DNA of 64,000 nucleotides from Cutibacterium avidum ATCC 25577 (GCF_000227295.1 NZ_JH165054.1:620693-684692), one strand, 5' to 3'. Shown: positions 22,099 to 26,159, numbered from the stretch's first letter. Notes: generated by a model not told the origin, from the letters alone. Translations and numbers: made by a program.

Positions 22099-22536
22099 TC
22101 AGGGTAGGTCATCCAGCGATTCCTTTGGACAATCGACCTGCTGGACCGTCACCCCATGGGCCACGTCGTACACCCGACACGCGACCGAGGATGCCGATTT
22201 GCCCCCGTCAGGTGGCAACAGAGAGCCTGACTCCATATGCCTGTATAAGTCGACACGAAACCGGGTCCCCTCACGACTACGCACAACCCACCAGTCGACG
22301 ACGTTAACATCCGGCGGGTTGGTCTCGTTGAACCATGTCTGCGCGGCGTCCGCACGTTCAGCCGGGGAGGTGAGCCCATGCGAGTCCAACTCCTTGCGCA
22401 ACGCGTCGGGCAGGTCGTAGTCAGCTCGCCCAGCAACATCCTCATCCGTCTCAGACTGGATCGTGCTACAACCCGCCAAGCCGAAGCAGAACAGCACACA
22501 CGCAGTCATGACGGCCCCGGACCGAAGACCCCTCAT
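22099..22536 (-). CDS. Small lipoprotein of unknown function, last gene of the DUF1906 operon
   Basis: The 145-residue product has a signal peptide ending in the lipobox GLAGC (lipidated Cys at residue 23), so it should be anchored outside the membrane. The mature part contains a short YDLPDALRKELDSHGL helix, a strand-rich DWWVVRSREGTRFRVDLYRH stretch and two Cys residues that could pair. I do not recognise the family. The ATG has GAGGAGG 6 nt upstream and overlaps the preceding stop by 4 bases (ATGA), so it is translationally coupled to the M15-like protein. Confidence 0.8.
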   Translation of the reverse strand: MRGLRSGAVMTACVLFCFGLAGCSTIQSETDEDVAGRADYDLPDALRKELDSHGLTSPAERADAAQTWFNETNPPDVNVVDWWVVRSREGTRFRVDLYRHMESGSLLPPDGGKSASSVACRVYDVAHGVTVQQVDCPKESLDDLP

Positions 22537-23222
22537 CGACGCCTCCTCAGTTCTCGTCGAGCAACCGCACGCCGCTCCGGCAGATACGCATCTATGGTAC
22601 CAGCACCCCCTGACGCATCCACGTGATCGACCATGTCGAAATGACTCTGCAACCGTCCCACCTCGGGTGAAGTCGGACCTTTCGCGAGGTAGATCAAGGA
22701 CTGGTCAGGCACCCTGAGATGCCCACCCCAAGCCAGGACTCCTCGCGACTCAGCAACGATATCCTCCAGCACAACAACCTCATCGGGGAAAAGATTACCC
22801 GTTGACCCGTACGGGAGAAAACTCTCACGAAAAAGGAAGGCCGTCCCGGATAGAAGGTTGGACCGTTGCGGTGAGGCAACATTCCGGTCATGCTGGAGCC
22901 CTGCCACGTCACCGGGACGCAATGAGACAAGTTCGTAGTTGATGCGCCTCAAAGCGTGCAGTAACACGACCGACGGTGCACCGGTCGTCAGAGTCACGTC
23001 GATCCCTGCACCCTCGACCGTCTGCGCAGCAGCAGCGGCACCGATCGGCCAGTCGTTAGCGCTGCGCATCCCAGACCATCGTTGCACGCGAGAAGGCTGG
23101 ATGGGCGACAACGGAACCGGGGGCAGGGCGGCGGCCTCAGAAGCCAGAACGGCCGTCAGCCCGCTTGCGGCCATACCGCTCAGCAAGGCACGACGGGGGA
23201 TCTTGTGGGAACTGCGTGTCAT
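22533..23222 (-). CDS. Tat-type exported protein with an M15 (D-Ala-D-Ala carboxypeptidase-like) fold lacking its zinc ligands
   Basis: The 229-residue product starts MTRSSHKIPRRALLSGMAAS, a twin-arginine-like signal (RR at 10-11), with likely cleavage near ASEAAALP. The body resembles actinobacterial M15-type peptidases (NDWPIGAAA, VEGAGIDVTL, LFPDEVVVLEDIVAE, GVLAWGGHLRVPD). In the motif S-x-H-x-x-G-x-A-x-D the zinc His and Asp are both Leu (L123, L130; SNLLSGTAFL), and the distal His is L176 (PDQSL). It is therefore probably a catalytically dead, binding-only homologue. The ATG at 23222 follows AGAGG; an upstream GTG at 23240 is possible. Middle gene of a coupled operon. Confidence 0.78.
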   Translation of the reverse strand: MTRSSHKIPRRALLSGMAASGLTAVLASEAAALPPVPLSPIQPSRVQRWSGMRSANDWPIGAAAAAQTVEGAGIDVTLTTGAPSVVLLHALRRINYELVSLRPGDVAGLQHDRNVASPQRSNLLSGTAFLFRESFLPYGSTGNLFPDEVVVLEDIVAESRGVLAWGGHLRVPDQSLIYLAKGPTSPEVGRLQSHFDMVDHVDASGGAGTIDAYLPERRAVARRELRRRR

Positions 23223-23236
23223 CGCCGCATAACCTC

Positions 23237-25615
23237 TCACGCGCTTGCCGCCAGCTGGCCGACGACCTTGGCGAAACCTGCAAAGAACGGGGATAGCTTG
23301 CTGGATGGCAGTACTCCCGGAAGCAGAGCTTTCTCGTTGATCTGTTCCTCTACCGCCGCTACTTGCAATTTGTGCAGGACCGGATCGGATGAATCGAAAA
23401 ACATAGCCCGAGCCGATTTCTCAACAGAATCGGACGACGAGTTGAACCGCAGCTGGTAGAAGTCGCGGAAGCGGGTCGTGATTGCCTGGCCAGTCACGTA
23501 TTCTCTCAGCACTGTCTTGAAGGGCCTACCGGCCCGGATTGCCCGACCCAGAAGATATCCATCCACATCTTCGATCATGTCCGAGAAACCGAAGGACGAC
23601 TCGACACCGCGATGAGCAAGCCGATCCATACAGAACGCATAGCCCGATGCATAACTCCTCTCATTGTTCATCCAATCGGCGTAGAAGGTCGAGAGGTCAC
23701 CACCCCAGCCCCCGAAATCGCCTCGGTTCGCATTTTTCTCGTCGCCCCAGCCCATAAGCATGACGGCGTTGGCAGTCGCGGCGAGATGATCCATTGATAC
23801 GGTCTCATTGTAAATAGGATCCGTGAACGTGATCAGACGCCAGTGGAATTCGCTCGTAGCTGCCGCAAGCCAGTCCTCATCGGGAGCCCCGAGCAAGACT
23901 CTCCAACCTCTGTAGAGACGGGTGTACTTCGGGTGTCGAAGAAACTCCAGCACCCGTTTGTTGATAAGATTGACGTCGCTGGTGCCCCCACCGTATTTCG
24001 CCGCCATCTCGTGGAGTTGATCGACTTTAGCCAGCACCTCCTCCAGTTTTGACGGTGTATGCCCACCCACTCCCTCCGGGCCAATTCCCGGATCGATATG
24101 TGCGCGGTGCACATCGCGGTCCAAATCAATTTCCTTGCCAGAATCAGCAGAGTAACGAACCTCCTGAATCTGGTTGAACGACCAATTATACGGAAGAGGG
24201 AACCCGAGATTGCCGGAGAAGCCCCACGACATTCCTGAGACAAATGAACTTACCGTGTAAGTCTGCTCTGAGACGCGCGAGCAGACATTACGACAACCGT
24301 AGACGCCAGCGCGATAGGCATGACCTCGGCTAGCCAAGGCCGCCTGAACTCCCCGAAAATAAGGAATAATATTGCTGTCAATTTCAGGATCGGTTGCGTC
24401 ATAGTCCACCGAGAAGTAGACAATGGCGCCTGGATTGAAACCGTAATAGACCATGCGGTCATGTGCCTTATTTCCGTGTTCCCATCCAGATTCAAAGGAG
24501 AAATCAATCAGGTCACGTGCATTGTACTGCCAAATGGGGAACACTCTCATGTTGCCAGCAAAAATAGCATGGAGTTCACCATCTTTGAGTTTTTTATCCA
24601 GCTTGCCGCCGGGAGGTTCATCAAGATACCTACCTACGACCCTATAACCCGATCTGACCAGCGAATGCGCAAGCGACTCCGTGATCGTGAAACGAGTATC
24701 ACACGCATGCGCCGCGCGATTTGGGTCACCTGTGGATACCAATAATTGACACCACGTTGCGTAGTCCACACGATTGGTAACTGGTAGCAAACTGAATGCT
24801 TGAAATGCCTGAATATACTTGGCCAACTTGTCATCAAACGTAGACTTGAACATTGTATGAACCATGCCTTTACCTCTTGGAACAGCACCGTTGAAGACAC
24901 AAGCCGCAGACAGCAACTCGACAAGAACACCACTATCACCAGGCTTCAAAATATGGGCTGCCAGCTGCTGTCGGGTGGCCGGCCCAAAATTCCCGTTCAC
25001 CGAGGAATCTGCTATTCCAAACTCAGATTGAAGTGCCTTCATTAGTAGTTTTTGAACATCACGCGAATAATGTCCCTCCGTAGGGATAAGCGTTGCAAAA
25101 CTACGCCGCCAATAACGGCCATTCAACCACTGCTGGATCTTACGAACTTCCGGATCACCTCCGGCGACTAGGACGTAAGCATCCATCGTGAGCAAGGCCT
25201 TGAACAGTTTAGCATTCAGTCTATCCTGCTTCCCAATACCCATGTTGTCGGTCATGGCGTACAAGGAACCCGCCACTGCATCCTGCTGCGGCCCAAAAGG
25301 AGGTGAACTTCTCCAGATCCCGTCGAGATCCCCACCGGGATAACCTTTACAGTAAAAGGCGCACTTAATGATGTTGACAATATTCTTGTTCTGTTCGCCC
25401 GGCCCGACACCACCACGGGCGTCCACCTTGGACATTGTGGTCGGACCGAACGCATGCGACAGTTCCTGGATCCCCAACTCGTGCTGCAAGCCTTGCGTGA
25501 GCGAGTACATCGTCGCCCAATTCGTTTTGCCATTCTCCGGGCAACGGTCATAGCCAGCAATGCCCGAATACGTCGCGTTGACCCACCTCTGGGCATCCAG
25601 CACCCGCTCATCCAT
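23237..25615 (-). CDS. DUF1906 (Rv2525c-like, glycoside-hydrolase-like) protein with N-terminal peptidoglycan-binding-like repeats
   Basis: The 792-residue product starts MDERVLDAQRWVN at ATG 25615 (AGGGG upstream); a GTG at 25645 is less likely. Residues 1-300 hold two or three repeats resembling peptidoglycan-binding modules (GLQHELGIQ, ALQSEFGIADSSVNGNFGPA). Residues about 305-515 are a DUF1906 TIM-barrel-like domain (GYRVVGRYLDEPPGG, AIVYFSVDYDATDPEI, YRAGVYG, EIDLDRDV). Residues 530-792 form an unassigned domain with DHLAATANAV and GDFGGWGGDLSTFYADW. There is no signal peptide, which is odd for a wall-directed protein. Codon use is AT-richer than its neighbours, suggesting transfer; similar layouts are known in Firmicutes. 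Confidence 0.82.
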   Translation of the reverse strand: MDERVLDAQRWVNATYSGIAGYDRCPENGKTNWATMYSLTQGLQHELGIQELSHAFGPTTMSKVDARGGVGPGEQNKNIVNIIKCAFYCKGYPGGDLDGIWRSSPPFGPQQDAVAGSLYAMTDNMGIGKQDRLNAKLFKALLTMDAYVLVAGGDPEVRKIQQWLNGRYWRRSFATLIPTEGHYSRDVQKLLMKALQSEFGIADSSVNGNFGPATRQQLAAHILKPGDSGVLVELLSAACVFNGAVPRGKGMVHTMFKSTFDDKLAKYIQAFQAFSLLPVTNRVDYATWCQLLVSTGDPNRAAHACDTRFTITESLAHSLVRSGYRVVGRYLDEPPGGKLDKKLKDGELHAIFAGNMRVFPIWQYNARDLIDFSFESGWEHGNKAHDRMVYYGFNPGAIVYFSVDYDATDPEIDSNIIPYFRGVQAALASRGHAYRAGVYGCRNVCSRVSEQTYTVSSFVSGMSWGFSGNLGFPLPYNWSFNQIQEVRYSADSGKEIDLDRDVHRAHIDPGIGPEGVGGHTPSKLEEVLAKVDQLHEMAAKYGGGTSDVNLINKRVLEFLRHPKYTRLYRGWRVLLGAPDEDWLAAATSEFHWRLITFTDPIYNETVSMDHLAATANAVMLMGWGDEKNANRGDFGGWGGDLSTFYADWMNNERSYASGYAFCMDRLAHRGVESSFGFSDMIEDVDGYLLGRAIRAGRPFKTVLREYVTGQAITTRFRDFYQLRFNSSSDSVEKSARAMFFDSSDPVLHKLQVAAVEEQINEKALLPGVLPSSKLSPFFAGFAKVVGQLAASA

Positions 25616-25659
25616 GAATAAACCCCTATCTGCGCTGCAAGCCACATGCTTTTAGTTAT

Positions 25660-25672
25660 CACGATTATCGTG
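25660..25672. promoter_or_regulatory. Palindromic operator candidate upstream of the DUF1906 operon
   Basis: CACGAT-T-ATCGTG is a perfect 13-bp palindrome 45 bp before the operon's start codon. It overlaps a possible -10 (GATAAT on the minus strand). A repressor or activator binding here would control the whole operon. No regulator gene is adjacent. Confidence 0.45.
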
Positions 25673-25681
25673 TTTCTGTAT

Positions 25682-25701
25682 TATCCGCACGAACGCGGAT
25701 A
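25682..25701. promoter_or_regulatory. Inverted repeat in the DUF1906 operon promoter region
   Basis: TATCCGC-N6-GCGGATA lies 67 bp before the start codon. On the minus strand it is part of TTGTGT, an 18-bp spacer and GATAAT, which could be a sigma-70 type promoter. Assignment is tentative. Confidence 0.35.
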
Positions 25702-26159
25702 GTACACAAAACACTCGGCTCCAAAGCTAGAGGATAGCATCCGTGCCTAGCCCGCAGGCAGCCACCCCCAACCTTCCCTCGTCCAAAACTTACGCACAAC
25801 GATTCTCCGAGGCCAAAGGCCGCTCTGATTGCTGGAAGCCCAAAGGTCATCTGGAGTCCAAATCACTCGCGGTTGCAAAACACATCACCATCGCCACGGC
25901 ACAAACCCAGATGGGCACTTCTCCGATCGATTTCCCAATTCGAGGGAGCAAAGATCATCCGCGTCATTTCTATTACCTGAGAAAACACGTCACCATGGCC
26001 ATCAGAAAAAGAAGCCGATATTCATACCAGCACGCATCGGTATCCATGCGCGCTACGCGAAAAGCGGCTGACCGGGCCGAGCACCGTGACATGATGGCAT
26101 TAGTCGGCGATGCGATGGGCCACCGACCACCAATCGCGTACACACCGTAAAGAGTACCA
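25702..26159. other. Non-coding, AT-richer gap before the rclA-like gene
   Basis: The stretch sits between two divergent units and must hold the promoter of the rclA-like gene. An open frame of 135 codons on the plus strand here shows no family resemblance, no ribosome-binding site and unusual composition, so I do not call it a gene. Confidence 0.4.

What the first reader, a model, noticed from the sequence alone, without database searches (positions are those of the whole stretch)
22099..25701. Coupled three-gene envelope operon: DUF1906 protein, zinc-less M15-like Tat protein, lipoprotein
Three genes on the minus strand are packed with a 14-nt gap and a 4-nt overlap (ATGA at 22533-22536), have AT-richer composition than the flanks, and share a palindromic promoter region. 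All three point at the cell wall: peptidoglycan-binding-like repeats plus a glycosidase-like DUF1906 domain, an exported D-Ala-D-Ala-carboxypeptidase-like fold, and a lipoprotein. I know of no described system with this composition. A wall-sensing or wall-tethering complex is a reasonable guess.
Basis: partly seen in the sequence, partly recalled or inferred. Interest (0 to 1): 0.75.

Follow-up and report, generated by a model that had tools for sequence, protein, structure and literature searches.

The report
Skin-bacterium wall-precursor toxin and immunity operon
Three coupled genes in a Cutibacterium (skin-bacterium) genome most likely make a toxin that destroys the cell-wall building block (lipid II) of rival bacteria, an inactive peptidase-like helper exported by the Tat pathway, and a membrane-anchored lipoprotein that protects the producer; the general kind was predicted in 2025, but this version with a lipoprotein that is duplicated, swapped and kept alone between species is new.

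Summary
The operon is real: 25615-22099, minus strand, in a Cutibacterium relative of C. namnetense and C. modestum. It is not a wall-sensing complex. That domain folds like TelC, the lipid II phosphatase toxin (VIA Z 9.1, next hit 2.1; motif residues invariant). eLife 2025 (PMC12419801) already predicted this architecture, with a secreted VanY-like protein and a 3TM protein, as a conflict system. New here: (1) the VanY-like protein has lost at least two of three zinc ligands in all nine relatives aligned; (2) the 3TM gene is absent and a lipoprotein stands in its stead; (3) the lipoprotein behaves like an immunity gene: two divergent copies in two species, retained without the toxin in another, exchanged between species; (4) the PGBD-Rv2525c module is shared (37% over 505 aa, ending at the barrel) with the inferred BacA of enterococcal bacteriocin 41 and carries at least three different C-terminal domains: a delivery module. 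The toxin has no signal peptide; its export is unsolved, and the Tat-signal pseudo-peptidase is the candidate escort. Best reading: antibacterial toxin-immunity operon, new variant of a known kind.

The parts
23237..25615 (-). Gene 1: 792-aa toxin protein without signal peptide (PGBD repeats + Rv2525c-like barrel + TelC-fold C-terminal domain)
   Evidence: ORF and Pfam; homologues; fold
24662..25615 (-). aa 1-318: peptidoglycan-binding-like repeats
   Evidence: PG_binding_1, E 5e-7, 2 stretches
24113..24661 (-). aa 319-501: Rv2525c-like glycoside-hydrolase-like domain (DUF1906)
   Evidence: PF08924 E 1.6e-43
23240..24046 (-). aa 524-792: TelC-fold domain; invariant H610, D633, W637, D640, D679, D683, D685, R715, R723
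   Evidence: Alignment A1; AF2 pLDDT 82.9; VIA-align to 5ukh TelC Z 9.1, 190 aligned
22533..23222 (-). Gene 2: Tat-signal, M15/VanY-like protein lacking the zinc ligands (alternative GTG start at 23240)
22099..22536 (-). Gene 3: 145-aa lipoprotein (lipobox LAGC, C23), candidate immunity protein
25673..25710 (.). Upstream inverted repeat (16-nt arms, 6-nt spacer), symmetry not conserved

Best explanation
The locus is an antibacterial toxin-immunity operon. Gene 1 makes a large toxin whose PGBD and Rv2525c modules bind (perhaps locally open) the peptidoglycan of a target cell and whose C-terminal TelC-fold domain then hydrolyses lipid II at the outer membrane face, stopping wall synthesis. Gene 3 is a lipoprotein held on the outer face of the producer's own membrane, where it inhibits incoming toxin, as membrane-anchored TipC does for TelC. 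Gene 2 is a catalytically dead VanY-fold protein with a Tat signal that travels with the delivery module, not with one toxin domain; it most likely serves export or wall-docking of the signal-less toxin, possibly as a Tat 'hitchhiker' escort. Shown: gene order, domains, TelC fold, loss of zinc ligands, C-terminal domain swapping, gene-3 duplication, orphaning and exchange. Inferred: enzymatic activity, immunity, escort role.
For: TelC fold: model pLDDT 82.9, pTM 0.85; 5ukh TelC is the only strong match, Z 9.1 against 2.1 for the next. The H...D...D pattern and the D+6 aspartate that PMC12419801 calls unique to TelC families (D679/D685) are invariant in 13 homologues. The same architecture is predicted as a conflict system. 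Delivery module shared with inferred BacA of bacteriocin 41, 37% over 505 aa, ending at the Rv2525c boundary; other C-terminal domains in S. clavuligerus and G031. Gene 3: toxin full-length in own, G003, G004, G005 only but gene 3 also in G001 (intact, no toxin), G002 (frameshifted), G006 (remnant), and two divergent copies in G003 and G005; alleles shared between species (G005a/G003b dS 0.056 while pepN dS is 1.11); dN/dS mostly 0.25-0.58. TipC precedent: membrane-anchored, several paralogues per operon. Gene 2: present in 3 of 396 phylum genomes, all with gene 1 (p about 4e-5 without own genome), and kept beside swapped toxin domains.
Against: No experiment. Foldseek itself gave no significant TelC match and PDB sequence profiles found none; all-helical domains give middling Z by chance; only one of the five AF2 models was good. 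Gene 3 has no recognisable fold and only a very weak match outside Cutibacterium. Export route unknown: Tat escort is untested, and Firmicute relatives manage without gene 2. The orphan pattern rests on nine genomes.
Confidence: 0.72

Rival explanations
1. Gene 2, not gene 3, is the self-protection factor: the dead VanY fold binds the D-Ala-D-Ala end of lipid II and shields it; gene 3 anchors or helps it.
For: Zinc ligands lost while the fold core (SGTA, WGG) is kept, as expected of a binder; exported like an immunity factor for an extracytoplasmic toxin.
Against: Gene 2 stays beside the delivery module when the TelC domain is replaced (S. clavuligerus L033, G031), and G001 kept gene 3 but only the tail of gene 2. 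Gene 2 is not membrane-anchored.
Confidence: 0.15
2. A housekeeping wall-remodelling, sensing or tethering complex of the producer.
For: All three parts point to the wall; Rv2525c of M. tuberculosis is proposed to be a peptidoglycan hydrolase (reference title).
Against: Full-length in only 4 of 9 congeneric genomes, decayed in others, recombined between species, plasmid-borne relatives in Enterococcus, Lactiplantibacillus and Streptomyces, and a TelC-type toxin domain.
Confidence: 0.07
3. A phage endolysin or prophage remnant.
For: PGBD + DUF1906 occur in some phage lysins; an Alicyclobacillus phage endolysin matches the Rv2525c part at E 5e-6. A broken paralogue lies beside phage-like genes elsewhere in the genome.
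Against: No phage genes at the locus, fixed place between pepN and a pyridine-nucleotide oxidoreductase gene in six genomes; only 2 of 50,697 phage records match; no IMG/VR relative of the TelC domain or of gene 2.
Confidence: 0.04

Closest known systems
PGBD-Rv2525c-prok-TelC conflict systems of Actinomycetota (eLife 2025, PMC12419801)
   Same: Same three-part toxin protein; operon with a secreted VanY-superfamily gene; read as targeting rival walls.
   Different: There with a 3TM-CCDN protein (or an Ig protein); here no 3TM gene but a lipoprotein downstream. The paper calls the VanY-like partner a peptidase; here its zinc ligands are absent. No Cutibacterium, bacteriocin or BacA mention in its main text.
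TelC-TipC of Streptococcus intermedius (T7SS LXG toxin; PMC5555719, PMC6193138)
   Same: C-terminal domain fold and signature residues; membrane-anchored candidate immunity protein with paralogues.
   Different: No LXG domain; PGBD-Rv2525c delivery module instead; a Tat-signal partner; the candidate immunity protein is a lipoprotein, not a TM protein.
BacA-BacI of enterococcal bacteriocin 41
   Same: The PGBD-Rv2525c module of the inferred BacA is 37% identical over 505 aa; a small membrane protein follows; Bac41 subtypes differ in immunity specificity (PMC8532689).
   Different: C-terminal domain unrelated (Ybfg_C + hydrophobic end); works with the lysin BacL1 beside a holin-like gene; no Tat partner. 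The name BacA for this gene is inferred from operon order beside bacL2 and its 726-aa length (length from memory).
Rv2525c of Mycobacterium tuberculosis
   Same: Homologous TIM-barrel domain.
   Different: Tat-secreted itself; no PGBD or TelC domain.

Membership tests
prok-TelC (lipocone) toxin domain | TelC fold | tested here: met
   VIA-align Z 9.1 to 5ukh, 190 of 269 residues, rmsd 4.2; next hit Z 2.1. Foldseek alone not significant.
prok-TelC (lipocone) toxin domain | Active-site H and D residues, with an extra D six positions after the H4 aspartate and a C-terminal R | tested here: met
   H610, D633, D640, D679, D685, R715, R723 invariant in 13 sequences; criterion from PMC12419801. The pairing of R with D685 in space was not measured.
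prok-TelC (lipocone) toxin domain | Lipid II phosphatase activity | not testable with these tools
   -
PGBD-Rv2525c-TelC conflict system of Actinomycetota | PGBD + Rv2525c + TelC in one protein | tested here: met
PGBD-Rv2525c-TelC conflict system of Actinomycetota | 3TM-CCDN partner gene | tested here: not met
   No such gene between or after the three genes here or in C. namnetense and C. modestum; present in Streptomyces and Geodermatophilus loci
PGBD-Rv2525c-TelC conflict system of Actinomycetota | Secreted VanY-superfamily partner | tested here: met
   Homologous to the Streptomyces partner (30-46% id), Tat signal in members
M15/VanY peptidase | Zinc ligands H and D of SxHxxGxAxD and the final H | tested here: not met
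   All nine rows read S-N-x-x-S-G-[TS]-A-x-x; final H present in some genera only, L in Cutibacterium
M15/VanY fold | Overall fold | tested here: inconclusive
   Pfam M15_4 at E 7e-4, below cut-off, in one relative; hhalign E 0.034; AF2 model too poor (pLDDT 42)
T7SS LXG effector | N-terminal LXG domain | tested here: not met
   N-terminus is PGBD repeats; no LXG hit in Pfam
TipC immunity family | Sequence or fold similarity to TipC | not tested

The most novel reading that the evidence does not exclude
The PGBD-Rv2525c module is the delivery half of a polymorphic-toxin family spanning Actinomycetota and Bacillota (TelC toxins, bacteriocin 41 BacA, and others), and in actinobacteria a catalytically dead VanY-fold protein carries the folded, signal-less toxin out through Tat as a hitchhiker: a new export route for large antibacterial proteins in Gram-positives.
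Probability: 0.22. Interest if true: 0.8.

Novelty: new variant of a known kind. Interest (0 to 1): 0.52.

Why it matters
It gives a purely computational prediction (PGBD-Rv2525c-TelC conflict systems) a compact, testable three-gene case in human-skin commensals, with natural immunity alleles, orphan copies and toxin-free sister species as ready-made controls. It ties those systems to an experimentally studied bacteriocin (Bac41), whose BacA protein is known only as a co-factor of the lysin BacL1, and it asks a concrete open question: how a large folded toxin with no signal peptide leaves the cell.

Tried and rejected
Sequence searches of the PDB with the C-terminal profile and with gene 2 gave chance or signal-peptide matches only (one weak ChiX, M15-type, match at E 0.039). 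Foldseek alone did not find TelC. AF2 of gene 2 was too poor to use, and its fold search listed only unrelated regulators. IMG/VR scans with both profiles: no relatives. Gene 3 in plasmids: none. T7SS as the export route: an EccC-like gene lies in own, G002, G003, G005 and G006, with a partial match in G004, below the family cut-off, but the toxin has no T7SS-type N-terminus; left open. The palindromic upstream region as a conserved operator: rejected, symmetry lost in G003 and G004. Promoter-like hits are at chance level. Two Bac41 primary papers are not held, so Bac41 facts come from secondary sources.

Full report
What is there. The three minus-strand genes are as described: gap, ATGA overlap, twin-arginine signal, lipobox and AT-rich first gene are confirmed. 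The genome is a Cutibacterium species; named relatives with the locus are C. modestum (92% identity for gene 1) and C. namnetense (95%).

Gene 1 is more than DUF1906 plus PGBD. Pfam covers only the PGBD and Rv2525c parts, up to aa 501. The last 270 residues hold invariant H610, D633, W637, G639, D640, D679, D683, D685, R715, F716 and R723 across Cutibacterium, Kutzneria, Geodermatophilus, Streptomyces, Curtobacterium and Enterococcus. An AlphaFold2 model from seven sequences reached pLDDT 82.9 and pTM 0.85 in its best version; the other four models were poor. Aligned to PDB chains, the one clear match is 5ukh, TelC of Streptococcus intermedius (Z 9.1, 190 aligned, rmsd 4.2; next Z 2.1). TelC cleaves lipid II between undecaprenol and the diphosphate, and is toxic only from outside the cell (PMC5555719, PMC12419801). 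The second aspartate six residues after the H4 aspartate, given as unique to TelC families, is D679/D685 here.

The kind is known on paper. PMC12419801 (section 31) describes TelC fused to PGBD and an Rv2525c barrel in Bacillota, Actinomycetota and fungi; in Actinomycetota with either an Ig protein, or a 3TM-CCDN protein plus a secreted VanY-superfamily gene, read as a conflict system. I find that arrangement in several Streptomyces loci and Geodermatophilus. Kutzneria has toxin plus VanY-like gene only. Cutibacterium has toxin, VanY-like gene, then a lipoprotein, and no 3TM gene.

Gene 2. Its family is found only beside the toxin: 3 of 396 phylum genomes, all toxin carriers (hypergeometric p 3.9e-5 leaving out the own genome). 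Of 18 actinobacterial loci with the toxin that I read, 14 have gene 2; L012, L014, L017 and L026 do not. True M15_4 peptidases read SxHxxGxAxD ... Gene 2 also accompanies toxins whose C-terminal domain is not TelC (S. clavuligerus plasmid L033, genome G031). That ties it to the delivery module rather than to immunity against TelC. Because gene 1 lacks a signal peptide, and the Rv2525c protein of M. tuberculosis is a Tat substrate, I propose a Tat escort; this is inference. TatC is present in all nine genus genomes.

Gene 3 behaves like an immunity gene. All loci lie between pepN and an oxidoreductase gene. Among nine congeneric genomes the toxin is full-length in own, G003, G004 and G005. Gene 3 is also intact in G001 with only the tail of gene 2 before it, frameshifted in G002, and a 34-residue remnant in G006. 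G005 has two tandem copies and G003 has one on each side of the toxin; the copies within a genome differ in the middle third and nearly agree in the last third. dN/dS is mostly 0.25-0.58 for gene 3 against about 0.07 for pepN among the close species and 0.09-0.23 for gene 1. TipC is likewise membrane-anchored, outward-facing, and found as several paralogues beside telC, only one of which protects.

Interspecies exchange. Own and G005 differ at dS 0.66 in pepN but 0.008 in the Rv2525c segment; G005 and G003 differ at dS 1.11 in pepN but 0 over aa 502-560 of gene 1; gene-3 copies G005a and G003b differ at dS 0.056. In G003 the flanking pepN is 64% identical to the own copy while gene 1 is 93%. 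Toxin and candidate immunity alleles therefore move between Cutibacterium species.

Wider family. 541 plasmid records, mostly Enterococcus and Lactiplantibacillus, encode relatives. Many E. faecalis hits stop at aa 485: the one opened lies in an operon with bacL2 and a holin-like gene, the Bac41 locus, and the 726-aa protein there (BacA by position and length; my inference) matches over 505 aa at 37%, up to the end of the barrel, then carries Ybfg_C and a hydrophobic end. Membrane proteins follow the toxin in each lineage: 131 aa with one TM in E. faecium, 196 aa multi-TM in L. plantarum, three TM-anchored proteins in Curtobacterium of which two are clearly paralogous (32.6% identical, E 1e-15). 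One delivery module, changing toxin ends and changing membrane partners is the signature of a polymorphic toxin family.

Limits. Nothing here measures activity, immunity or secretion. The TelC assignment rests on one good model plus signature residues plus a published prediction. Gene 3's fold is unknown. The orphan and duplication pattern comes from nine genomes.

Noticed in passing
L011 5440-7886 (own genome C1:65439-67885): A second, frameshifted copy of the toxin (three reading-frame pieces, TelC-like HWAGWAGDL end) next to phage- or plasmid-like replication genes.
   Followed up: partly
L033 3121-5343 and L015 (genome G031): Same PGBD-Rv2525c module with a different, unnamed C-terminal domain (about 240 aa, no TelC motif), still beside the dead VanY-like gene.
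   Followed up: partly
L014 10496-12241 (Curtobacterium plasmid): Three tandem TM-anchored exported proteins directly after a TelC-type toxin, two of them clear paralogues: a likely immunity array.
   Followed up: partly
L083 7402-7989 (L. plantarum plasmid Lp16B): Multi-TM 196-aa ORF after the toxin on a tiny 8.6-kb plasmid, a likely immunity gene missing from the plasmid gene table.
   Followed up: partly
L056 9530-9994 (genome G003): Broken pieces of the flanking oxidoreductase gene, 74-86% identical to the own copy, between toxin and a second gene-3 copy, as if dragged in with the operon from the other clade.
   Followed up: no
L077 6874-11304 (own genome C1:804873-809303): A large EccC-like ATPase gene with an FHA-type start, near a Ser/Thr kinase gene, so a T7SS-like apparatus may exist in some Cutibacterium.
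   Followed up: partly
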